Below the pieces are notes generated by a model. That model saw only the letters and a program-made list of their open reading frames with translations. It had not been told where the DNA came from and searched no databases. 41,713 nucleotides of DNA from a virus: the IMG/VR virus record IMGVR_UViG_3300033153_002310, positions 1-41,713 of that record; one strand, written 5' to 3'. This document shows, piece after piece, positions 6,200 through 41,713 of the stretch (position 1 is the first letter of the stretch; each line of letters opens with the position of its first letter). Made by a program: the position numbers and the translations under genes.

Positions 6200-6841
6200 C
6201 TACTTTTCCTTTGGCTTCTCTATAACTGCCTCTACTTCCTTGCTCTCATCCACATCAGGCTCTGGTCTCAGGTCCTTGGCTACTCGTATCTGGTCTCCTC
6301 TATCTCTAGGCGCCATGTTATCTAGCGGAGTACCAGGAGGTAGAATAGGACCTGATGGAGGACCTTTGACTTCCCGAGGAGCAGGCTCTGGCTTTGGCTC
6401 TTCAGTAGCTACCTCAGCAAAGGCTGCTCTGGCAGGAGATACTTCTTCAGGTGCAGGAGTTACATCCTTTAGAGTATCATCTACTCCTAGCTCAGTTGCT
6501 AAACTTCCAGATGTAAGAGCTTCATCCAACTTTGCCTTTGCCTCCTTCCTTGCCTCATCTGCCTTATCCTTAGCTACTATCTCTTCCTCAGTAGCCTCAG
6601 CCACATTAGCACCATCTACCGCAATCTCTATAGCCTCGGGACTTATCTCAGGCACCCAACGGATAGGAATAGTAACACCAGGCTTCCTCGGGTGCGGTAC
6701 TGAGGAGAACATTGGGAATACTATCTCTACTGGGTCTACGTTCTTAGACTGGAAGAGATAGTTGCGGATGTAGGCGGGCAAGATGTAGTTGATGTCCCTT
6801 TTCTCAATTTGCATCTGTTTCTGGTCTGTGTTTATAATCAT
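6200..6841 (-). CDS. Acidic, largely disordered protein of unknown function
   Basis: 213 residues. The first 70 residues could fold (IEKRDINYILPAYIRNYL, then FPMFSSVPHPRKPG). The rest is acidic, with an EATEEEIVAKDKADEARKEA helix and a long proline-rich stretch (EEPKPEPAPREVKGPP) ending in a charged tail. It has no cysteine motif and no membrane segment. Low complexity and its place between the HNH and ERCC4-like genes suggest a binding or scaffolding partner of the replication proteins, but that is inference only. Confidence 0.72.
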   Translation of the reverse strand: MIINTDQKQMQIEKRDINYILPAYIRNYLFQSKNVDPVEIVFPMFSSVPHPRKPGVTIPIRWVPEISPEAIEIAVDGANVAEATEEEIVAKDKADEARKEAKAKLDEALTSGSLATELGVDDTLKDVTPAPEEVSPARAAFAEVATEEPKPEPAPREVKGPPSGPILPPGTPLDNMAPRDRGDQIRVAKDLRPEPDVDESKEVEAVIEKPKEK

Positions 6842-7269
6842 TCTTCCTCCTGTAATAGATTGTAATGTAGCTTCCTATGGCACTCTGCGCATAACCATAC
6901 TACTTCTAACGGCTTATCGTAGTTCTCGTGATGACCTTGAGAGTTGGAACTGCCGCAGATTACGCAAGGCTGTCTGCTTATCTTGCCTGCTCTTATTGCA
7001 TAGTTTAGGCTATCATTAGCTGCGGCTTTCTCTGGATTATTAGCTCTGTTCCTTATAGCTCTTTCTTTTGCAGGTTCAGGATTACTTGCATAGTAACTCC
7101 TTTCATAATCTCGTTGTTTAGTTCTATTCCTAGAGCGCCTTTCTCGCTCATTCTGATTATGGCAAAGCTTGCAGTACTCATAGTATCCTCCTGAGCACAT
7201 TTCATCTTTCCAGAATATTTGTCTGCACCTAGAGCACTTATATAGTCCTAGCTCTACGTCAATAATCAT
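6838..7269 (-). CDS. HNH homing-type endonuclease, second copy
   Basis: 143 residues, with the same plan as the protein at 3984-4376. It has an N-terminal CSRC...CKLC cluster, an Arg-rich linker, then CVICG, QGHHENY and LCAECHRKLH. Shared phrases (KPLEV, WLC) show the two are paralogues or relatives that entered separately. The codon overlap with the RNase H-like gene upstream (4 bases) and with the next gene shows tight integration. It is probably a free-standing homing endonuclease. Confidence 0.87.
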   Translation of the reverse strand: MIIDVELGLYKCSRCRQIFWKDEMCSGGYYEYCKLCHNQNERERRSRNRTKQRDYERSYYASNPEPAKERAIRNRANNPEKAAANDSLNYAIRAGKISRQPCVICGSSNSQGHHENYDKPLEVVWLCAECHRKLHYNLLQEEE

Positions 7270-22753: not shown

Positions 22754-23008
22754 ATGGGTTGGAGTGAACTTACAGCAGCACCAGAATTAGATAGAATCTT
22801 CAAGAAGCTAAAACTCAAGTACACTATGCGAAGGGTACTACAACCTGGTACTAATCCAGTAGTACAGATAATGCACGAGAAGAGGCTGAGTATATCAGTT
22901 ATCAATGAGATTCTAGCTCTATTCCCTGAGGCTATCTATATTGAGTTTCTACCAGATACAGTCTTCCAGGATGAGGGAGATACATACGACTTTGGAGATG
23001 ATAAGTAA
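22754..23008 (+). CDS. Unknown 84-residue protein
   Basis: I start it at the ATG at 22754. The longer frame upstream is a poly-Arg reading of the previous gene's end, and AAGGAGG stands just before 22754. The product is mixed alpha/beta (ELDRIFKKLKLKYTMRRVL and RLSISVINEILALFPEAIYIEF) with an acidic tail. Its stop overlaps the terminase start. The role is unknown. Confidence 0.6.
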   Translation: MGWSELTAAPELDRIFKKLKLKYTMRRVLQPGTNPVVQIMHEKRLSISVINEILALFPEAIYIEFLPDTVFQDEGDTYDFGDDK

Positions 23009-24684
23009 TGCCAGTAGTAGCTACTATTGAAGATGCGATGCGAGTGCTGTTCTCTGACAGACGTCTTGCCTTATCTACACTACTGGAGATAGTAAACAAG
23101 GATAGGCAGGCAGTCCCTCTTGCGCCTAATCCTATCCAGGATGATGTCATAGCTATGTCAGGAAACAGAGACATCTATGTCAAGCCTGGTCAGGTAGGCT
23201 TCACATCTATCATACTTGGAGACTTCTACCTGGATAATATCACTGTCAATGGCACTGTATCAGTTGTTATCAGTTACGATGAGTTCTCCGCTCAGAGGCA
23301 AATCCTTAAAGCTAAACGCTATCATCAGAGCCTACAGAGGAAGATTCCTACTATTCCTAAACTTGACCATAAGTCAGCAACAGAGCTCTCGTGGGAGGAC
23401 AAGGCTACTAACTTCTACTCTGTCATGTATATCTTCAGTGCCAGGAGCTATATGCTAGGTCGTGGTGAGGCTATACATAATCTGCTACTGGATGAGTATG
23501 CATTCTGGCCTATTGGTACTCATGAGCTGGTGTTTGCATCTGCAGTGCAGAGAGTGCCTCTGAGGGCAGGAACTAAAATCCGTATTGGTAGCACAGCAAA
23601 TGGCGAGGACAATCCTTTTTGTGAGATGTATAGAGCATCTAAGGAAGGAACATCGGTAGCCAGGTCAGTCTACAAGCCTCACTTCTATCCCTGGTTTATC
23701 CACCCTGAGTATGTGATGTATCCTGATGACCCATTCTGCCTACATGGAGATGACCAGGAGCCTCTACCTAATCTGCAACCAGATGAAGTTAATCTGATTA
23801 TGCTTCTGATAAATACTTATAATCTTGATGAGTTTGAGGCTATGAGCAGGATTAGATGGAGGCGGTATAAGATAGCTGAGATGGCTAGCCTGAGACGGAC
23901 AGGAGAGACTCAGTTCATCTTCCCCCAAGAATATCCAGAAGATGATGAGAGCTGCTTCCTGACAGCTGGTGACCAGGCATATAACATAGACATTATATCT
24001 CAGAAGATACGGGAGTGCTATCCTGCTCCTATCCAGCAGAACATAGTAAATCCTAAAACTGGCATAGCTGCTACCTTAGATATATGGTATCCTCCTGAGG
24101 AAGGCAAAGGCTATCTCTGCTCTATTGACCCTGGCAAAGGCAAGACATCTGAGTCAGTAGCTCACATCTGGACTTTCAAGGAGGGCTATGAGGAGAAGGA
24201 TGGTAAGGTGGTGCCTCCAGAGATGAAGCACTGCGCAACTTTGGCAGGCTGGTATGATGAGTGGGAGATGGCTGAGTACTGCAAGGAGGCAGCCAGGTTC
24301 TATAAGAATACTGTAATAGCACCAGAGGATAATCTGGATATAGTAAGTCATCTTAGAGACTGGCCTAGCCTCTACTACCGTGAAGACCCTCGGGATGGCA
24401 AGATTATTAGAGCAGTAGGCTGGCAGACTAACGTCAGCACTAAGCCTTATATGATAACAGAGCTAAGCAGGAATATGGAGTACATCACTTGCCATGATAT
24501 AAGATTCTGGTCACAGTGTAAGAACATCAGAAGGGATAGTTCAGTGCGGACAGGCATAACAGTGATAGGAGCAGATGACCACCATGATTCAGGCGCAATA
24601 GCAGTTGTCTGTAGAAACGCTATGCCAGTTGACAGAGGTTATGTAGGAAGTTGCGGATGGCCTGAAGGTTGGGGGCAATTCTAA
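23008..24684 (+). CDS. terL: Terminase large subunit
   Basis: 558 residues. The ATPase domain has a variant Walker A (KPGQVGFT, 59-66) and Walker B LLLDEYAFWP (D162, E163). A coupling segment GSTANGEDNPF lies near 195-205. The nuclease domain has D374 in SIDPGKGK, E440 in APEDN and D523/D527 in DDHHDS, the usual three-acid RNase H-fold site. It drives DNA packaging through the portal encoded downstream. Assembly of the genome as a circle fits headful or cos packaging. The start overlaps the stop of the preceding gene. Confidence 0.93.
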   Translation: MPVVATIEDAMRVLFSDRRLALSTLLEIVNKDRQAVPLAPNPIQDDVIAMSGNRDIYVKPGQVGFTSIILGDFYLDNITVNGTVSVVISYDEFSAQRQILKAKRYHQSLQRKIPTIPKLDHKSATELSWEDKATNFYSVMYIFSARSYMLGRGEAIHNLLLDEYAFWPIGTHELVFASAVQRVPLRAGTKIRIGSTANGEDNPFCEMYRASKEGTSVARSVYKPHFYPWFIHPEYVMYPDDPFCLHGDDQEPLPNLQPDEVNLIMLLINTYNLDEFEAMSRIRWRRYKIAEMASLRRTGETQFIFPQEYPEDDESCFLTAGDQAYNIDIISQKIRECYPAPIQQNIVNPKTGIAATLDIWYPPEEGKGYLCSIDPGKGKTSESVAHIWTFKEGYEEKDGKVVPPEMKHCATLAGWYDEWEMAEYCKEAARFYKNTVIAPEDNLDIVSHLRDWPSLYYREDPRDGKIIRAVGWQTNVSTKPYMITELSRNMEYITCHDIRFWSQCKNIRRDSSVRTGITVIGADDHHDSGAIAVVCRNAMPVDRGYVGSCGWPEGWGQF

Positions 24685-26707: not shown

Positions 26708-29700
26708 ATGACTATGCCAGAAGAAGAAAAGAAACCACCAGTAATTCCTCCACCTCCAGTAGAGCCGCAAGAGTACTTCCCTGGCTTTAAGCTGGAATCT
26801 ACACAGTTAGAAAAAAGTCGCTACCAGGCTCAGAAGCGTGTAACAGAGGCTAGCAGGGAGCTTGAGAAGGTTAAGCAACTTGGTATCAAACATCCTCTCA
26901 GCGGCATCTGGGGGTTTGCTCCTCCACCTGGATTATTCTCTCCCGCTGCTGGTGGCCTGATGTCAGAAGAGGACTATCAGCGTGTGCTTCAGCAGTCTAA
27001 CGCAGAGCTGGAAACTGCTAAGAGGGATTATACCAAAGTTGCCTGGAGATACCAGGTGCTTCAGAGCCTACCTATAATACTAAAGGATAGGAAAAGTAGC
27101 ATCAGGAGCATAGATGCTGTCGTAGCTGCCTTCTCTAATGAGTACTTTGATGACTCTGACCAGCAGTGGTTACATGGCATCTGGAGTAAGGCAGAAGGGC
27201 TAATACCTCCAGAGCTACCTCCTGAATTTGTAGGCACTCCTGAGGAAGCCAGGACACAGCTGCTAGAATCTATCCTCCAGCAGCCAAAGCTAGAGCTAAG
27301 GGGAGTCCATCATCTAACTGTAAATGAACTACTCAGGTCTTTCCAGCCTAGAGCACCAGAGCTTCCTAAAGGCATGGATACGGAAGATGTAAGGAGTATC
27401 CTTAAAGATTTACAGTTTGACGAAGAGACTCAAAAGCAGATAGAGGACATCCATGAGTTAGCTGAACAGCTAGTAAATGATTGGAAGTGTCAGGTAGCCT
27501 ATATGGACTTACTCCGTTCTGGTGTAGAGCAAGCTGAGGCACCAGAACTAACTCCAGTAGAGTTCCTTAAGATGACCTTCACTCAGCCAGCATTATCAGC
27601 TCTGGAGTTTCTAGAGAAATACTTCAATATGCTTCCTAGACCTCTAGCTGCTCTGGCTATTATGGCTTTTCCCAGGATAAGAAAGGACTCTGATGCAGCT
27701 GAGTTAGAGGCCCTGTATAATCAGTATAAGGAGCTGGGGGAGAACAGCTGGCAGGCTGCATCTCTGGCTTATCAGGACTGGGATACTAACATCTGGCTCA
27801 AGATGTTTATAGAAACTATGTTTGACCCAACATCTTATATAGGCTTGGGCATCCTAACTAAGATAACTAAACCTCTACCTTACATAGGCAAATTCGCTGC
27901 TGGTCTTGAACGAGGCTGGCTAGAGCTCTGGGACTTACCCTTCAGAGGAGCCAGGAACATTATTAAGAGGATTCCTAAGACTCCTGGTCATTATGCTGTG
28001 TCAATTGCAAGGCAAGCATTCTTAGACTCCAGAGCCTTCCTCCGCAGAGTAACAGGCAGAAATGTGGATAGTCTCAGTGCATCCGAGATAGTAGACTCCT
28101 TCAAGCTAGCTATCAATCAGGCTGCTGAGATGCCCCACGAGACTGGCAATATGGCAGTCAGGACAGGGCGCTATCTCATAGACCACGACTTCCTCACTGA
28201 CATCCAGGTCAAGGATATGCTTACTACTGCTGGTGTCAAGAAGCCAGATGTAACTAAGCAACTCCTTATGGACTTCAACTACAACTGGGACAGATTCTTC
28301 TACAAAGCTCAAACAGCTAAGGAGGCAGCAGCAGATATACTAGCCCATGCTGGATTAGAGCCTACTGAGGAGGTGCTAGGTAAACTGGCAACTCAGCTAG
28401 AGAAGCATCGCACAAAGATAATTGACGGTGCTACCGACATCCTCAGAGGCGATACTGCTAAGGAGATACTAGATTCAGTATTTAGGAATATTGAGGACTT
28501 GCAGCTGAGGAAGATAGCTAGCCCTGTCTATGACTTTGTCCGTAAGTCTGGCAGAGCTACCAGCTGGATAACTCGTAGCACTGATAAGATAATCCGCAAT
28601 AGCCTGGTAACCTGGTTTGATAGGCAGATTACTGCTCCTATGGCTAACCAGTATCTGCTATTTACTAACTATGGGCCTTTCAATGTAGCTGAGAATGTTA
28701 TGAGGAGCTTCCTTGGTGCTGGGGAAGTATTCTATCCAGCGGCAACCAGTCCTATAGATGAGGTCATTAGGATAGGAGAAGGCTTGACTAGTCTGCCTTA
28801 CGACTTCATACAGCACCAGGGTAGATTAGGTAGGCTAGAGATAGCCGTCACTGACCCTAAGACTGGCAAGACACTAGTCTTCAGCAAAGGCAGGATACCT
28901 ACTGTAACTAGACCAATGCCAGAGGCAGTTACTAAAGCACTTCCAAAAGTTGAGATAGAGCTACCAGCTGGAGTAACTATAAAACCTCGTGAGGGTATGG
29001 TGTCTTTGAGAATTGGTAATAAGGACTATCCTATCCGCTCCTGGCAGGACTGGAATGATATGTTTGGAGACATAGGCACTCAGCAAAGAGCATGGTACTT
29101 CCTAACTAAATACAAGCAGTTACTATGGAAGGAAGCTCCTGATGAGATGGCTCATATTGCTAAGGTCTTTGATGACGCAGATAGCCTACTGGCAGGGATA
29201 GAATCCTTTAGCAAGAAGGAGAAAGCTGACCTCAGGAGAGTCCTTGAGCAGGATGCTACTGTAGGACCTGACATGGTAAGAAAGCATGATGTGCCAGTGC
29301 TTGAAGTAGAGCGCAGGAAGGGACTATATGAGCTAAATAAGATACTGGACAAGTGCACTGACATATACTCTATCCATAAGCGGACTCTTAGGGAGGAGTG
29401 GCTTAGTGGTAAGATGGTAAAAGAAGGCATAGATAATAGGGTAGGTGCTGTGGCTGATAGTATCCGAGAGTTCAACATAGCCAGCCTAACTCATGAGGCT
29501 GATATGCTTGATAGACTAGTAGCAGACCTGGCTGAGTTTGTTCCAGAGAATTCAGATGAACTGCTTCGTACTATGGGCTTCATATCTGATTTGACTGAGG
29601 CTACTGGTGAGAGGATATCTGATGTCAGGCAGATTACTCGTGCCAGAGCACAGAAGCTAACTCCAGAGGAGACAGAGGACTTCTACAAAGGTAGCAATGA

Positions 29701-32700
29701 AGTGCTGGGAGAGTTTATAGGTAAGAGTAGTGAGAGTGTAGATGAGATACTTAGAAGTATCAGAAAAGCAGTAGAGGATAGGAAATTACTTAAGCCAGAA
29801 CAGATGACTACTCTAGACAATCTTGCTGAGGCTATCCGCGCTCGCCATGCCAATACACTAGCTACTCGTGAACTTGACCGCAGAATAATCAATGAGATGA
29901 TGGAGCAGACTCCAAAAGCTAAGCGGGATAAGGCCTTCTGGGAACATCTAGAAGCTAGGCGCTCTGCTGAAGCCTGGGAACCTTACTGGTCTAGAGAGGC
30001 TGAGCTCTTTGAGGCTGTAGAGGACATCAAGAATCAGCTCATGGTAGACTTAGGAGTAACACCAGATACTGTCAATGTAGTACCAGAGGTAGTAGACAAG
30101 CTGACTCCTGCTCATGTAGCCTATATGCTAGGAGTAACTGGTGATGACCTCAATAAGGCTCTGACCAAAGTTGGGGCTATGGTTACTATCCGCCCAAAGC
30201 GACAGTTCACTACTTGGGTATACTCTAAAGCCAAAAAGACTGCCAGCAGAGTAGGCAAGACTCCAGATGACATAGGATTCAGCAAAGAAGCTATTGGAGA
30301 TGTCTATGACCAGATGTTCCAGAATCTAGGCTTTGACCCTAAGATGATAGCAGATGAGCCTCTGACACCTACTATGAGCCAGCTTGAAGAGGTCAGGCAG
30401 GAGCTGCATAAGATAGAGGGAATTAGCAAGATTCCTGAGAATGACTATGTGAAGTATAAAGGATATGTGAATAAGTTGGCAGATGACCTAGAGCAGACTC
30501 CTATGTATAGAGACTTTGCCGAACCTCCAGACTTTGAAGGTACTCAGCAGGTCCTTAAACTGGGGCATAGTATTAGTGACCTAAGGAAGATTGCATCCGG
30601 CAAAGGAACTATTAAAGTCTATCACGGAGCACCCACTGAATTTGCTGAGGCTTTAGTGCGGGAAGGACCTAAGATTCCATACAGAGTTCAGGATGTGGTT
30701 GATGAGGTTGCTAAGATTTATGGTCTAGACCGTAGAGAGCTATCTGCTCTGGCATATCGCAAACATGAGATTATAAAAGATTTGAGTGCAGACACAGCTC
30801 CTGTGGCTAGCAGATGGGCGCAGCACTTTCCTCAGGGAGAAGTGTTATCTGAAATAAATGATACTGCCAGATTATTGCTTAGGGCTAGACAGACTAGAAC
30901 TGCTGGCGAGAAGATGTCTGATGCGTATGGGAGGGTGCTGACTGAGGGTAAATTAGCCTGTCGTGAGGCTGGTGTACCTGCAACTCACACTAATATGGCT
31001 AAGATTCTTAACCTACCAGACAAGTATGAATTAGCTACCAAGAAGGGGGCAATAGTAGAACTGGAGATAGACGCATCAACATTATCTGAGAGTAGAAGAT
31101 TAACCGCACAGCATTACCTAGATGATATAGCTGCCAAAGAACTGCCTGAGGCTGAGGCTTTGAAACATTGGAATCATACCTATAAGGACTTCCATTTGAA
31201 GCCTGGGCAGATAAGGTCTGCGAGGATAGCTGTTAGGGATATTCCTTTAGGTCCTCAGACTGGTGGTAAGGAAAGGTGGTGGGCTAAAAAGGAATCTGCC
31301 ATGATGAAGACTCGTACTCAGTATGAAATGGACTTCACTGACTACTCTAACGCCAACATGGTAGATGCTGCTATGAGAATGATATTCCCCTTCTGGCAGT
31401 ATGAGTGGCAGAGATACTTCTGGCTTCCTCGTCAATTCCTCAAGACTCCTGGCATAGGCACTGGAGTAGGCAGGTATATGGATACCTCAGACCAAGGCTA
31501 CATCCCTATCCCTGGCACTGACATCCAGTTTAATCCACTCCGAGGCACTGTCTTCATGGGAGGCTTCAGACGCCTATACCTCCGAGACTTCCCTGAATAC
31601 TATGATGCCTTCCCAGGTATGGAGGTTATAGACTACATCAGCAGACTGGGCTTCTATCCAGGCATACACGTTATGCTGCCTATAATACTCTTCGGTGCTG
31701 CACAGAACAAGCCTGAGTTTGGTGAAGTAGCCCCTGCCTGGGTTAAGACTCCCCTCAATGCTGCTAGAGCAATAGCACCAGAGCAAGCAGGCAAAATCAT
31801 AGATAGAATCTTTCCAGACAGGTTCAGAGACTACCTAACTATGCTAACTCTCGGCAAGTGGGGCGAGGATGCTGATGAGATATGGAGGAAGAAGTCTCAG
31901 GGTATAAAGCTAACTGAAGAGGAAGAGAAGCTCTGGCTTAGAGCAGAGGCAGAAGCCACTGGTCTCAAAGGTATCCTCTTTGAGCAGACTGGTCTGTTCC
32001 GCCTAAGGCCTCAAGAGTATACTCAGATACAACAAGACTACAGGGAGCTCATAGCCGAACTAACAGGAGTACCTACAGATGTCCAGGAGACTATCCAGCG
32101 GCGCTATCCTGTAACTGGTAAGAGATTCTCTGACTACTACAAGCTAGACTCTCTCCAGCAGAAGATTATCTATGAGCAGGAAGCCTATAAACGCTGGCAG
32201 GGAGTTACTACTCCTCTCTATCCTTCTACCTGGCAGCAGGAGGATGTAAGGGTCAGAGACTACTATGAGAAGGTAGAGCAACTCTATAACGATGCTCGCC
32301 ATACTGGTATCTTTGATGAGCAAGGCAATCTAGTCCAGCCCGCTATAACTGAGCTAACTCGCCAGTGGGTATCTGGTGAGATAGGTCCTGACCAGTGGGT
32401 ATCTGGTAGGGGAGAAGTCCTTGACCATGCCTCAGCAGCATCCTTAGAAATGGGCAAGAGAGACTATCCTGATGTGCCTAAGACTCTAGACCAGAGGGAA
32501 GCAAGATACAAGGAGCGAGGTATCCCTGCCCCTACTCAGAGCCCAGACCAAGAGCTACTCTATCTCTACTATGAACTGAAACCAAAATACAGCTGGGACT
32601 GGGATAGAGACCGCTATGCCTATGACTTTGACTCTTACTTTGCCAAGATAGATGCTCTACTAGAATCTATGCAAGGTGAGTTCCGCCAGCGCTTTGAAGA

Positions 32701-33082
32701 TAGAATCCAGTATGATTGGACTCCAATGGAGAAGCTCTACTGGCAAATTAGCCGAGAGTATCTAAGACCCTATAGGCTAATAAGGAATATAGTACTAGAG
32801 CAGTATACTCCAGAACAGCAAGAGCTCATTAGGAGATATGAGGTAGCCAGAGGAGCTGAGCGTACTGAGATTAAAGATACTCCTGGACCTGAGGGCAGAA
32901 AGCTCATTAGCCACTTCACCAGCACCCTTAGAGAAGCTAGACAGAGATACAGGATGCTTGACCCTACCACTGATGCCTGGGCTTACTTCTTCGGCAGTAC
33001 GGACTCCTTGTTAAGTACTCAAGCAAAAGAAACCTATAAGCAGTTGGAGAAGCAATACCTTACTCCGATGATGATAAGATGA
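26708..33082 (+). CDS. Giant virion protein with ADP-ribosyltransferase-like domain
   Basis: 2124 residues, the largest gene, between portal and scaffold. It is mostly helical with a Pro-rich N-terminus. Residues about 1300-1510 look like an ADP-ribosyltransferase fold: IKVYHG (1302-1307), EALVREGPKI, LSADTAPVASRWAQHF, the strand KGAIVELEID (1446-1455) and FHLKPGQIRSARI (from 1495). The region after about 1530 has IFPFWQYEWQRYFW and amphipathic hydrophobic segments (GFYPGIHVMLPIILFG). It may be an internal ejected protein of the polyvalent type. It is not placed like a tape measure and shows no RNA polymerase motif. Confidence is high for the gene and moderate for the domain. Confidence 0.85.
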   Translation: MTMPEEEKKPPVIPPPPVEPQEYFPGFKLESTQLEKSRYQAQKRVTEASRELEKVKQLGIKHPLSGIWGFAPPPGLFSPAAGGLMSEEDYQRVLQQSNAELETAKRDYTKVAWRYQVLQSLPIILKDRKSSIRSIDAVVAAFSNEYFDDSDQQWLHGIWSKAEGLIPPELPPEFVGTPEEARTQLLESILQQPKLELRGVHHLTVNELLRSFQPRAPELPKGMDTEDVRSILKDLQFDEETQKQIEDIHELAEQLVNDWKCQVAYMDLLRSGVEQAEAPELTPVEFLKMTFTQPALSALEFLEKYFNMLPRPLAALAIMAFPRIRKDSDAAELEALYNQYKELGENSWQAASLAYQDWDTNIWLKMFIETMFDPTSYIGLGILTKITKPLPYIGKFAAGLERGWLELWDLPFRGARNIIKRIPKTPGHYAVSIARQAFLDSRAFLRRVTGRNVDSLSASEIVDSFKLAINQAAEMPHETGNMAVRTGRYLIDHDFLTDIQVKDMLTTAGVKKPDVTKQLLMDFNYNWDRFFYKAQTAKEAAADILAHAGLEPTEEVLGKLATQLEKHRTKIIDGATDILRGDTAKEILDSVFRNIEDLQLRKIASPVYDFVRKSGRATSWITRSTDKIIRNSLVTWFDRQITAPMANQYLLFTNYGPFNVAENVMRSFLGAGEVFYPAATSPIDEVIRIGEGLTSLPYDFIQHQGRLGRLEIAVTDPKTGKTLVFSKGRIPTVTRPMPEAVTKALPKVEIELPAGVTIKPREGMVSLRIGNKDYPIRSWQDWNDMFGDIGTQQRAWYFLTKYKQLLWKEAPDEMAHIAKVFDDADSLLAGIESFSKKEKADLRRVLEQDATVGPDMVRKHDVPVLEVERRKGLYELNKILDKCTDIYSIHKRTLREEWLSGKMVKEGIDNRVGAVADSIREFNIASLTHEADMLDRLVADLAEFVPENSDELLRTMGFISDLTEATGERISDVRQITRARAQKLTPEETEDFYKGSNEVLGEFIGKSSESVDEILRSIRKAVEDRKLLKPEQMTTLDNLAEAIRARHANTLATRELDRRIINEMMEQTPKAKRDKAFWEHLEARRSAEAWEPYWSREAELFEAVEDIKNQLMVDLGVTPDTVNVVPEVVDKLTPAHVAYMLGVTGDDLNKALTKVGAMVTIRPKRQFTTWVYSKAKKTASRVGKTPDDIGFSKEAIGDVYDQMFQNLGFDPKMIADEPLTPTMSQLEEVRQELHKIEGISKIPENDYVKYKGYVNKLADDLEQTPMYRDFAEPPDFEGTQQVLKLGHSISDLRKIASGKGTIKVYHGAPTEFAEALVREGPKIPYRVQDVVDEVAKIYGLDRRELSALAYRKHEIIKDLSADTAPVASRWAQHFPQGEVLSEINDTARLLLRARQTRTAGEKMSDAYGRVLTEGKLACREAGVPATHTNMAKILNLPDKYELATKKGAIVELEIDASTLSESRRLTAQHYLDDIAAKELPEAEALKHWNHTYKDFHLKPGQIRSARIAVRDIPLGPQTGGKERWWAKKESAMMKTRTQYEMDFTDYSNANMVDAAMRMIFPFWQYEWQRYFWLPRQFLKTPGIGTGVGRYMDTSDQGYIPIPGTDIQFNPLRGTVFMGGFRRLYLRDFPEYYDAFPGMEVIDYISRLGFYPGIHVMLPIILFGAAQNKPEFGEVAPAWVKTPLNAARAIAPEQAGKIIDRIFPDRFRDYLTMLTLGKWGEDADEIWRKKSQGIKLTEEEEKLWLRAEAEATGLKGILFEQTGLFRLRPQEYTQIQQDYRELIAELTGVPTDVQETIQRRYPVTGKRFSDYYKLDSLQQKIIYEQEAYKRWQGVTTPLYPSTWQQEDVRVRDYYEKVEQLYNDARHTGIFDEQGNLVQPAITELTRQWVSGEIGPDQWVSGRGEVLDHASAASLEMGKRDYPDVPKTLDQREARYKERGIPAPTQSPDQELLYLYYELKPKYSWDWDRDRYAYDFDSYFAKIDALLESMQGEFRQRFEDRIQYDWTPMEKLYWQISREYLRPYRLIRNIVLEQYTPEQQELIRRYEVARGAERTEIKDTPGPEGRKLISHFTSTLREARQRYRMLDPTTDAWAYFFGSTDSLLSTQAKETYKQLEKQYLTPMMIR

Positions 33083-33185: not shown

Positions 33186-33857
33186 ATGGAACCTAAGAAC
33201 CAACCTGAAGGTGCCGTTAGCGGCGATGCAGACCAGACTACACCTACAACTCCTGAGCCTACACCTGCTCCTGAATCTTTAACCTCTACTGCCAAGGTAG
33301 AGATTGTAGACGGTAAGGTAGTGGTGGATGGTAAGAAGTTTGTAGCTGAATCTGACTTGATAGCCGCAAAGCGGAGTTTGGGGCAGAAGCTTGAAGAGCA
33401 GCAGACAATCCACAATGAAGCCATAGACAAGGCTAAGGTGGAACTCTCTGAAGCTCAGCAGGCTGCGGCTGCTGCAAACGCTAAAGTCCAACAGCTAGAA
33501 CAGGCCAGTACAACTGGTGCAGTATCTGATGAGGATGCTGCGAGGAGTAAGCAAGAAATAGAAGCTGCTAAAAGCAGTGCAGAGCAGGCGGCAGCCAAGG
33601 CTCTCGAACTGAGACGGCAGAACATCATCCTCAAATCTGGAGGAGCAGTAACTGCCGAACAGTTAGAAGGTAAAACAGAAGAACAGCTTGACTCCTTTGA
33701 AGAGGCTCTAAAAGCCTTAGCACAGTCTCGGGGTATTGGCAACTATGCCACTGGTGGTACTGGAGGCGGTGCTGCTCCTGAAACACCTATGGACAGGGCA
33801 GCCAGGATACTCCAAAGTACTCCAGTACGTGGCACTCGCACTGCCGAGACAAAGTAG
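33186..33857 (+). CDS. Capsid scaffolding protein
   Basis: 223 residues. The N-terminus is Pro/Thr-rich, then VEIVDGKVVVDGKKFV is a small beta unit. A long Ala/Gln/Glu coiled coil follows (IDKAKVELSEAQQAAAAANAKVQQLEQ and AAKSSAEQAAAKALELRRQN). A short C-terminal helix (MDRAARILQS) could bind the capsid protein. It lies directly before the major capsid gene, the standard scaffold position, and is first on the strong promoter at 33103-33164. No protease motif is seen. Confidence 0.8.
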   Translation: MEPKNQPEGAVSGDADQTTPTTPEPTPAPESLTSTAKVEIVDGKVVVDGKKFVAESDLIAAKRSLGQKLEEQQTIHNEAIDKAKVELSEAQQAAAAANAKVQQLEQASTTGAVSDEDAARSKQEIEAAKSSAEQAAAKALELRRQNIILKSGGAVTAEQLEGKTEEQLDSFEEALKALAQSRGIGNYATGGTGGGAAPETPMDRAARILQSTPVRGTRTAETK

Positions 33858-33881: not shown

Positions 33882-34946
33882 ATGGCAGACTCGGGCGGGC
33901 ATTGGTCTACTTTAGCCGAAGCCCAAAAGCTAACACAGTCTTTGAAGATTCCTGGTGTCTTTGAGGAAGACATCAAACGTAATAACCCTTTAGAAAGAAT
34001 GCCAGTCGCCCAGGCAGCCCGAAGTGGGCTCAAGATAGAGTGGTTAAGAGAACTCACCACTACCGAAAGCGCAGTCGCTGAAGTAGACATCGGTGAGCAA
34101 CTCTCCTGGTCTGAAGACGTGACCTACGAAGAGAAGGAGATGGAACTCAAGCGCACCTATATCCAGCGCAAACTTGACCACTTTGTTGAAGGCATCTACG
34201 GCACCTACAATAACTACGAAGCCAGAGTGCTGCTAGAGTCCGAAAAGGGCCTGAAGAGACGACTCGGTGCAAGAATCATCTATGCCGATACTACCTACAC
34301 CAGCTCCAAGCAGTTTGACGGTCTCCATGCCTTAGCTGCAGAACACGGTACACCCTATACTGCTGGCTCTGCCTACGATGCTAAGAATGTCGATGCTGGG
34401 GATACTGCGCTGAGCCTCGCTCTCCTGCGAGACCATGTAGATGCTATGAAGCTCGGCATAGACGAAATGCTAGTACCCTACGAAATCCTCCGCAGGTTTG
34501 ACGCAGCCTATCAGGAGAAGGGCTTTGCCGGCACTGCTGGAGACCATAGTCTAATGATGATAACTATGGGCTACAACGAGATTGGCAAGAGAGTCCTCTT
34601 CTGGGAAGGTATCCCTATGATTCGCACTGACTACCTGGTAGCGGAGGATGATGATACTGGTACTGGCTCTAGCTCAGACGCACGAGGTCTCTATGCATCT
34701 GGTGATAAGGTCTACTCCATCTTCACCCTCAAGTACGGTAACGTGATGAACATGGAGCCTGGCATCACCTTTGCCTATGGAGGCACTGAAGGTCTGGGTG
34801 ACTTCTACAAACTTGTTCGATTCCCTGAACTCGAGGACTACGATGCAGGCGGCATCAGGCTAGTCAACTATGGGGCTATCCTGCTGGGGTCGAGCCTGTG
34901 CCTCGGGAGAATCTTTGACATCCAGGATGCTGCGATAACTGTCTAA
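33882..34946 (+). CDS. Major capsid protein
   Basis: 354 residues. The sequence has an extended N-terminal arm, a spine-like helix region (ALLRDHVDAMKLGIDEMLVPYEILRRFDA) and IGKRVLFWEGIPMIRTDYLV, patterns seen in HK97-fold capsid proteins. Codon choice shifts here towards C-ending codons (CTC, CGC, TAC, GAA), unlike its neighbours. That is consistent with selection for high expression. AAGGAGG sites precede the ATG. It is flanked by scaffold and a decoration-like gene. Confidence 0.88.
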   Translation: MADSGGHWSTLAEAQKLTQSLKIPGVFEEDIKRNNPLERMPVAQAARSGLKIEWLRELTTTESAVAEVDIGEQLSWSEDVTYEEKEMELKRTYIQRKLDHFVEGIYGTYNNYEARVLLESEKGLKRRLGARIIYADTTYTSSKQFDGLHALAAEHGTPYTAGSAYDAKNVDAGDTALSLALLRDHVDAMKLGIDEMLVPYEILRRFDAAYQEKGFAGTAGDHSLMMITMGYNEIGKRVLFWEGIPMIRTDYLVAEDDDTGTGSSSDARGLYASGDKVYSIFTLKYGNVMNMEPGITFAYGGTEGLGDFYKLVRFPELEDYDAGGIRLVNYGAILLGSSLCLGRIFDIQDAAITV

Positions 34947-41043: not shown

Positions 41044-41713
41044 ATGGGTAAAACTGCACTACAGATGAGGGCTGCGTTAAAGACTGACCTCAGGACTACT
41101 GATGAAATAACTGATGCAGAGCTCAACCGTGCCATTGAGAGAGCAATATCTGACCTTAGCAGAATGTTGCCCAGAGAGAAGACTTACGAGGAGAGCCTAC
41201 AGTTCTCTGTATCAGCTGAGTCAGTTACTATGCCTGCTGATACTAGCCTGGATGCTATCGTTGCAGATGAGGACATATCATCTTTTGCTGCTGGCAGTAC
41301 CTGCACGATAGATGGGCAACCTGATGTGCCTAGGCCGCTAGTAGTAACTCTGACTGATGCCGACAACTCTATAACTGGAATGACCATAGATATCGTAGGT
41401 ACTGATGAGAATGATATTGCCCTAGCTGAAACCTTCTCCTACATCAAAGGTGATAGCAAGACCATCACAGGGAAGAAGTATTTCAAGAATGTCTACTCAG
41501 TCACTGCTGCACAGATAGCTGGAGTAGGTGCTTCAGACATTCTGGACATAGGCTACGGAGCTTATACTGATGTCTGGGTTAGCCTAGCTAACAAGCCTGT
41601 CAAGTGGGGCAGTGAGAAGGACGTAACTGACGAGGACGCCAATGCTCTCACCCGCAATACTGACTTCTACATAGACTATTACAACGGGAGGATTAAGGCT
41701 ATCAGTGGTGGCG
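41044..41713 (+). CDS. Head-tail adaptor-like protein (5' part, runs off the window)
   Basis: The start of the gene whose 3' part is at 1-1618. The ATG follows GGAGGTAAATT. The first 45 residues (LQMRAALKTDLRTTDEITDAELNRAIERAISDLSRMLPR) are the paired helices typical of phage adaptor/gp6-like proteins that sit under the portal. The beta-rich part follows and continues past the window end. The overlap with the left end differs by four residues, so two strain variants are represented. Confidence 0.68.
   Translation, partial: MGKTALQMRAALKTDLRTTDEITDAELNRAIERAISDLSRMLPREKTYEESLQFSVSAESVTMPADTSLDAIVADEDISSFAAGSTCTIDGQPDVPRPLVVTLTDADNSITGMTIDIVGTDENDIALAETFSYIKGDSKTITGKKYFKNVYSVTAAQIAGVGASDILDIGYGAYTDVWVSLANKPVKWGSEKDVTDEDANALTRNTDFYIDYYNGRIKAISGG
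41241..41713 (+). repeat. Terminal direct repeat, right copy
   Basis: The counterpart of bases 1-473, with 16 substitutions and no gaps. The first 96 and last 114 bases of the overlap are identical. Collapsing the two copies gives a circle of about 41,240 bases. Confidence 0.9.

What the first reader, a model, noticed from the sequence alone, without database searches (positions are those of the whole stretch)
30550..31260. ADP-ribosyltransferase-like domain inside a 2124-residue virion protein
Residues about 1300-1510 of the giant protein have the order of strands and motifs of an ART fold: VYHG, a helix with EGPKI, a loop with ASRWAQ, a strand KGAIVELEID and a closing xPxxI strand. ARTs delivered with phage DNA can modify host RNA polymerase or ribosomes, as the T4 Alt type does. 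Here the domain would travel inside a protein encoded between portal and scaffold, in a phage with no visible tape measure. A giant ejected effector is therefore a real possibility.
Basis: partly seen in the sequence, partly recalled or inferred. Interest (0 to 1): 0.8.

Follow-up and report, generated by a model that had tools for sequence, protein, structure and literature searches.

The report
Swappable enzyme slot in phage protein
A 2124-residue protein, encoded among a phage's head genes, carries at residues 1268-1521 an exchangeable domain that looks like an ADP-ribosyltransferase, and related phages carry nothing, another transferase or a different enzyme at the same place, as if it were a slot for cargo injected into the host.

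Summary
In detail: ORF 26708-33082 is 2124 aa, and all quoted motifs lie at 1304-1502. The stretch is an exchangeable cassette (residues ~1268-1521) in an otherwise conserved giant protein, for which I recovered about 100 loci from IMG/VR. A relative with ~90% identical flanks has an unrelated 115-aa segment there, and others have nothing. Elsewhere the site holds Pfam-detectable ART-PolyVal, GNAT or Pol-beta nucleotidyltransferase domains. Site content turns over on the core tree as if shuffled.

The window's cassette has homologs in two distant giants (51-52% identical, against 26-38% for the cores) and in an unrelated giant (30%). YHG (H1306), S1360, R1369, Y1492 and D1494 are invariant. 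Its first motif aligns in register with KptA, an ART-superfamily family (0 of 300 shuffles as good).

The ART fold is not proven. No Pfam or PDB sequence hit was found; a four-sequence AlphaFold model (pLDDT 78, pTM 0.60) has no ART match in Foldseek; the tested triad is H..(S)..D, not H-Y-E.

Best reading: a polyvalent-protein-like injected carrier with an ART-like cargo, probably a new ART-like family. This is a new variant of a known kind. Virion location and injection are inferred from position.

The parts
26708..33082 (+). Giant protein gene, 2124 aa: conserved core that carries the variable site(s)
   Evidence: homologs in about 100 IMG/VR loci
30509..31270 (+). Site B cassette (residues 1268-1521): replaced in L001, absent in L010 and many others
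30563..31246 (+). ART-like domain (residues 1286-1513), conserved in L060, L088 and L128
   Evidence: A5; model
30617..30676 (+). Motif 1, VYHGAPTEFAEALVREG region (from residue 1304), with invariant H1306; in-register match to KptA strand 1 and helix
30782..30826 (+). Motif 2, LSADTAPVASRWAQH region (residues 1359-1373), with invariant S1360, T1363, V1366, S1368, R1369, W1370; low confidence in the model
31043..31072 (+). Motif 3 strand KGAIVELEID (residues 1446-1455), with invariant G1447, E1451, E1453, D1455
31181..31213 (+). Motif 4, YKDFHLKPGQI (residues 1492-1502), with invariant Y1492, D1494, P1499; D1494 is the candidate acidic residue
29774..29791 (+). Site A junction (residues about 1023-1028), empty here; holds a GNAT-like (by eye) segment in L010/L016 and an HEFMH segment in L019
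24850..26703 (+). Portal-position gene, 617 aa; identity inferred from synteny only
   Evidence: upstream in 55 of 55 loci; no profile hit
23008..24684 (+). Large terminase
   Evidence: profile A8 matches T4 gp17, E 8e-9
33186..33857 (+). Scaffold-position gene, 223 aa; only a weak match (0.0038) to a head maturation protease family
33882..34946 (+). Major capsid protein
   Evidence: PHROG 212 E 7.5e-14; downstream of the giant in 68 of 68 loci

Best explanation
The region is an exchangeable effector cassette inside a giant protein made with the virion genes of a ~41-kb tailed phage. Shown: the core is conserved; the cassette is gained, lost and replaced repeatedly at one fixed site; several cassettes at that site are recognisable enzymes (ART, GNAT, Pol-beta NTase). 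Inferred: the giant protein is packaged and ejected with the DNA, as proposed for polyvalent proteins. In this phage the cargo is an ART-like domain, with H1306 in strand 1 and D1494 as candidate acid, which would use NAD+ to ADP-ribosylate a host macromolecule or inactivate a host defence factor as the DNA enters. The target is unknown.
For: Cassette: L001 is ~88-91% identical in the core but unrelated at 1268-1521; L010 joins directly, residue 1267 to 1524, in 10 bp. Census: site B is bimodal, 7-42 aa or 82-403 aa, leaving out rows with an intein downstream; on a 53-row core tree the seven states need 30 changes against a shuffled mean of 27.8. Enzymes in the slot by Pfam: ART-PolyVal L064 7e-7, L043 8e-6, L101 3e-4 (all below the curated cut-off), L016 0.026; GNAT L026 2e-7 and L062 3e-5, and NTP_transf_2 L023 6e-7 (above cut-off). 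Window cassette: homologs L060/L088 at 51-52% while cores are 26-38%, and L128 in another giant. Motif 1 against KptA: hhalign 30.3 versus at most 23.1 in 300 column shuffles, in register with KptA's HGT motif; PARP is a weak hit (E 0.2) of L128 at the same motif. Position: portal-position gene upstream in 55/55 loci, MCP downstream in 68/68. PMC5512222 names the same enzyme set (peptidases, ARTs, GNATs, Pol-beta NTases) in virion-associated polyvalent proteins.
Against: No Pfam, NCBIfam, PHROG, PADLOC or PDB sequence hit for the window cassette. Foldseek finds no ART (best E 0.35). Motifs 2-4 alone do not exceed shuffles against KptA. No tyrosine at position 2 and no E/Q acid, so catalysis may differ or be absent. 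No evidence of packaging or ejection beyond gene position. The giant core matches no described family.
Confidence: 0.6

Rival explanations
1. The cassette is an effector or accessory domain of another, undescribed fold; the YHG and xPxxI resemblance to ARTs is local convergence.
For: No ART match by Foldseek and no family hit; the model is mainly helical with three modelled strands; only motif 1 beats shuffles. Weak Foldseek matches to lytic transglycosylases (MltE, phage lysins; E 0.35-4, TM about 0.2) are not significant.
Against: Motif 1 against KptA beats 300 shuffles; several other cassettes in the same slot with YHG or YRG motifs are recognised as ART-PolyVal; even true ART families (Arr-DUF3990, for example) fail to find each other with alignments this thin, so non-detection is weak evidence.
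Confidence: 0.27
2. The giant protein is a purely structural inner-capsid or portal-vertex protein; its cassettes are surface elaborations kept for assembly or capsid volume, and nothing is delivered.
For: Many members have no cassette at site B, so it is dispensable for making virions; the core is long and conserved as structural proteins are.
Against: Dispensability and replacement by unrelated enzyme domains (GNAT, NTase, ART above or near Pfam cut-offs) fit accessory effectors better than structure.
Confidence: 0.13
3. The cassette is a KptA/Tpt1-like RNA 2'-phosphotransferase or other RNA-end enzyme that repairs RNA damaged by host defence.
For: KptA is the only ART-superfamily family tested whose profile matches significantly.
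Against: KptA's N-terminal part with its conserved GHS motif (seen in the sequences) is absent from the cassette, and the match covers only about 40 columns.
Confidence: 0.06

Closest known systems
Polyvalent proteins of phages and conjugative elements (Iyer et al. 2017, PMC5512222)
   Same: Large multidomain protein encoded with virion genes; the same set of enzymatic domains (ART, GNAT, Pol-beta NTase, metallopeptidase) occurs in the family; proposed injection.
   Different: Here a long conserved core has fixed insertion sites whose content is exchanged; the core and the window's ART-like cassette match no Pfam or PHROG family.
ART-PolyVal (PF18760; Tox-ART-HYD2 clade)
   Same: Histidine in strand 1 and a candidate aspartate near the end; the family itself occurs in the same slot in L043, L064 and L101.
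   Different: The window cassette does not hit PF18760, has S instead of Y at position 2, lacks the GYDAV motif, and has long helical inserts.
KptA/Tpt1 (PF01885)
   Same: LYHGT-helix-G motif aligns in register.
   Different: Lacks KptA's N-terminal domain and GHS motif; motifs 2-4 are not alignable above shuffles.
T4 Alt / VIP2 ART
   Same: Idea of an ART carried in the head and injected with DNA.
   Different: Alt has an R-S-E active site (PMC5512222); no sequence relationship was found.
MuF polymorphic toxins (PMC5576092)
   Same: Head-gene protein with interchangeable toxin domains, some of them ARTs.
   Different: MuF toxin domains are C-terminal extensions, mostly with a small downstream (immunity) ORF; here the slot is internal, no MuF domain is detected, and the next gene (33186) is the scaffold-position gene 103 bp on.

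Membership tests
ART superfamily | ART core fold (split beta-sheet with NAD pocket) | tested here: inconclusive
   Model from four sequences: pLDDT 78.2, pTM 0.60, motif-2 region below 50; no ART match in PDB or BFVD
ART superfamily | Strand-1 motif with catalytic H (HYE/HYD type) or R (RSE type) | tested here: met
   YHG with H1306 invariant in four homologs; in-register hhalign to KptA, 0 of 300 shuffles
ART superfamily | Second and third catalytic positions (Y then E/Q/D, or S then E) | tested here: inconclusive
   S1360 and D1494 invariant; no Y at position 2 and no E/Q at position 3, so H-Y-E/Q is not met; motifs 2-4 alone not above shuffles
ART-PolyVal (PF18760) | Match to the Pfam model | tested here: not met
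   No hit at E up to 10 for the window cassette or its homologs; other cassettes in the slot do match
Polyvalent proteins (phage type) | Encoded among virion genes | tested here: met
   Terminase, portal-position gene, giant, scaffold-position gene, MCP; 55/55 and 68/68 loci
Polyvalent proteins (phage type) | Two or more effector-type domains in one polypeptide | tested here: inconclusive
   One cassette in the window; L064 carries two ART-like segments, and L019 and L016 carry segments at both sites by eye; only one ART in L064 is recognised by Pfam
Polyvalent proteins (phage type) | Packaged and injected with DNA | not testable with these tools
   Needs virion proteomics and infection assays
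MuF polymorphic toxins | N-terminal MuF domain with C-terminal toxin | tested here: not met
   No Phage_Mu_F hit in P0001; the cassette is internal
T4 Alt/VIP2 | R-S-E active site | tested here: not met
   Histidine, not arginine, at the strand-1 position; no E-x-E closing motif in motif 4
KptA/Tpt1 | Full-length match with N-terminal domain and GHS motif | tested here: not met
   Only about 40 columns align; no Pfam PF01885 hit

The most novel reading that the evidence does not exclude
A widespread group of uncultured ~40-kb phages uses one giant injected carrier protein with a standard internal slot into which different enzymes, most often ARTs of several families including a new H..S..D type, are swapped between distant lineages: a natural plug-in system for delivering first-minute effectors against the host or its defences.
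Probability: 0.45. Interest if true: 0.8.

Novelty: new variant of a known kind. Interest (0 to 1): 0.62.

Why it matters
Head-carried effectors are known in few phages. A single conserved carrier with a mapped slot, natural empty versions and sister phages differing mainly in cargo would let one ask what each cargo does and which host factor or defence drives its exchange. The slot is also a directed way to find new enzyme families, since what sits there is likely an effector. The carrier core is itself a large undescribed family.

Tried and rejected
Single-sequence AlphaFold of residues 1250-1530 gave pLDDT 39.9 and was discarded. Direct searches with the cassette alone found nothing in IMG/VR, phages or PDB; tblastn of its homologs against phages and plasmids found nothing convincing, and neither did 398 genomes of one phylum. 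A genome-collection scan with the core found no prophage relatives, so the host stays unknown; a YHG[AT]P..FAE pattern scan of genomes gave only chance matches. Tail assembly chaperone (PHROG 35384, E 0.05) rejected as chance. Lytic transglycosylase by weak Foldseek hits rejected (E at least 0.35, TM about 0.2). Profile comparison with the slot's ART-PolyVal set and with Arr, DUF3990 and DarT was not above background, but true ART pairs failed too; one of the three DarT sequences was taken in a wrong frame, so that comparison is void. Contig breaks of near-identical L002/L003 at residues 1229 and 1562, about 40 residues outside the cassette on both sides, suggest strain variation there but prove nothing.

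Full report
WHAT WAS CLAIMED AND WHAT IS THERE. ORF 26708-33082 on the + strand encodes 2124 residues. The stated interval 30550-31260 is a good approximation. Alone, the stretch matches nothing: no Pfam, PHROG, NCBIfam, PADLOC or PDB sequence hit.

THE STRETCH IS A CASSETTE. A relative from IMG/VR (L001, P0002, 1983 aa) is 88% identical to the window's protein over residues 1-1020 and 91% over 1524-2124, but residues ~1268-1521 are replaced by an unrelated ~115-residue segment. In L010 (core 49-69% identical) the two flanks join directly, residue 1267 to 1524, with 10 bp between the matched pieces. Further relatives were found with alignment and DNA-pattern scans of the core, giving about 100 loci, some of them the same contig, with the downstream core. 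Anchor profiles on either side of the site show a bimodal spacer: 7-42 residues (empty) or 82-403 residues (occupied) when rows with an intein in the downstream anchor are left out. On a maximum-likelihood tree of 53 non-redundant cores, the seven site states need 30 changes against a shuffled mean of 27.8, so content is essentially unlinked to core ancestry. Sister pairs such as window/L001, L028/L043, L073/L101 and L062/L109 differ in cargo. I assigned ART, GNAT and NTase labels on that tree partly by eye; the label 'empty' alone needs 18 changes and does not depend on them.

WHAT SITS IN THE SLOT ELSEWHERE. Pfam recognises ART-PolyVal in L064 (7e-7), L043 (8e-6), L101 (3e-4) and weakly L016 (0.026), all below the curated cut-off; GNAT in L026 (2e-7) and L062 (3e-5), both above cut-off; and a Pol-beta nucleotidyltransferase in L023 (6e-7, above cut-off). 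By eye only, L014, L019, L040, L042, L049, L051, L057, L094, L098 and L109 also carry YHG-, YRG- or RxFRG-type ART-like segments. A second variable site near residue 1023, empty in the window, holds a GNAT-like segment in L010/L016 and an HEFMH segment in L019 (by eye). This is the set of protein- or nucleotide-modifying domains described for polyvalent proteins (ARTs, GNATs, Pol-beta NTases, peptidases; PMC5512222).

THE WINDOW'S OWN CASSETTE. Two distant giants, L060 and L088, carry its homolog in the same slot. Cassette identity is 51-52%, while core identity to the window is 26-38%, so the cassette has probably moved between lineages. A third homolog (30%) sits in a different giant protein, L128. 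Invariant residues in all four include Y1305, H1306, G1307, E1314, S1360, T1363, R1369, W1370, E1451, E1453, D1455, Y1492, D1494 and P1499. The profile of the four aligns with KptA, an ART-superfamily family, at score 30.3; the best of 300 column shuffles is 23.1; and the alignment puts YHGAP..FAE.L..EG on KptA's LYHGT....I...GL. In the best alignments to Arr and DUF3990 the same motif also pairs, but not above shuffles. Motifs 2-4 tested alone are not above shuffles. AlphaFold with the four sequences reached pLDDT 78.2 and pTM 0.60, with the motif-2 region unresolved. Foldseek found no ART in PDB or BFVD, best E 0.35. I therefore hold 'ART-like' at about 0.65-0.7 and do not file the domain as a proven ART or as ART-PolyVal.

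SURROUNDINGS. The gene order is terminase (T4 gp17 profile, 8e-9), portal-position gene, giant, scaffold-position gene, major capsid protein (PHROG 212). The portal-position gene is upstream on the same strand in 55 of 55 loci and the capsid gene downstream in 68 of 68. The portal itself was not recognised by any profile. No tape measure was identified in the window, and a DNA polymerase of PHROG 17 is present; a short-tailed phage is plausible but not shown. No ORF lies between the giant's stop and the scaffold-position gene that could encode an immunity protein, unlike MuF polymorphic toxins (PMC5576092).

HOW IT MOST LIKELY WORKS. Inferred: the giant protein is packaged, leaves the head with the DNA and carries its cargo into the cell. 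The ART-like cargo, with H1306 and D1494 as candidate catalytic residues, would transfer ADP-ribose to a host macromolecule in the first minutes, or disarm a defence. Rapid exchange of cargo at one site fits an arms race with hosts. Shown: core conservation, exchange at a fixed site, enzymatic nature of several cargos. Strongly suggested: horizontal movement of this cargo. Not shown: packaging, ejection, NAD+ chemistry, target.

NOVELTY. The theme (virion-borne multidomain effectors rich in ARTs) is known. What is new is an undescribed giant carrier family with mapped exchange sites and an ART-like domain family outside current models.

Noticed in passing
L047, L058, L074, L080, L100, L113, L116, L117 (giant-protein ORFs): Inteins (Pfam Intein_splicing 4e-5 in L058 and 1e-4 in L116, the two tested; the rest by eye) are inserted at the most conserved core motif, just after PFW or PYW (after FWNYE in L113; in L047 further downstream). 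Recurrent intein targeting of a virion-cluster protein is unusual.
   Followed up: partly
window:1-473 and 41241-41713: Imperfect direct repeat of 473 bp (96.6% identical, 16 mismatches) at the two ends of the record, so the genome may be near-complete with terminal redundancy; the mismatches hint at strain mixture.
   Followed up: partly
L019, giant residues about 1050-1270 (site A): Segment with an HEFMH motif, metallopeptidase-like by eye, not recognised by Pfam; L010 and L016/L017 carry a GNAT-like segment at the same site.
   Followed up: partly
L128:2727-3398 (-) and L129: The same ART-like domain lies in a second, unrelated 1567-residue giant phage protein; that protein was not characterised.
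   Followed up: partly
L001:13700-14077 (+): The 126-residue cassette that replaces the window's (YHLRSPYRK ... QLGLALGYEDVGLP) has no family hit; the fold is unknown.
   Followed up: no
window:3984-4376 and 6838-7269 (-): Two related small proteins with CxxC motifs and an HNH-like end, perhaps homing endonucleases (by eye).
   Followed up: no
L002:13231: The giant gene is broken by a frameshift near residue 1077 in a 93% identical relative; real or a sequencing error.
   Followed up: no
window:30509-31270: Third-position GC of the cassette is 36.6% against 45.9% for the rest of the gene, consistent with a foreign origin.
   Followed up: partly
MT774390.1 51464-51685 (crAss-like phage): The L043 ART cassette weakly matches (E 0.08) a giant putative RNA-polymerase subunit protein of a crAss-like phage, perhaps another carrier with an ART.
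   Followed up: no
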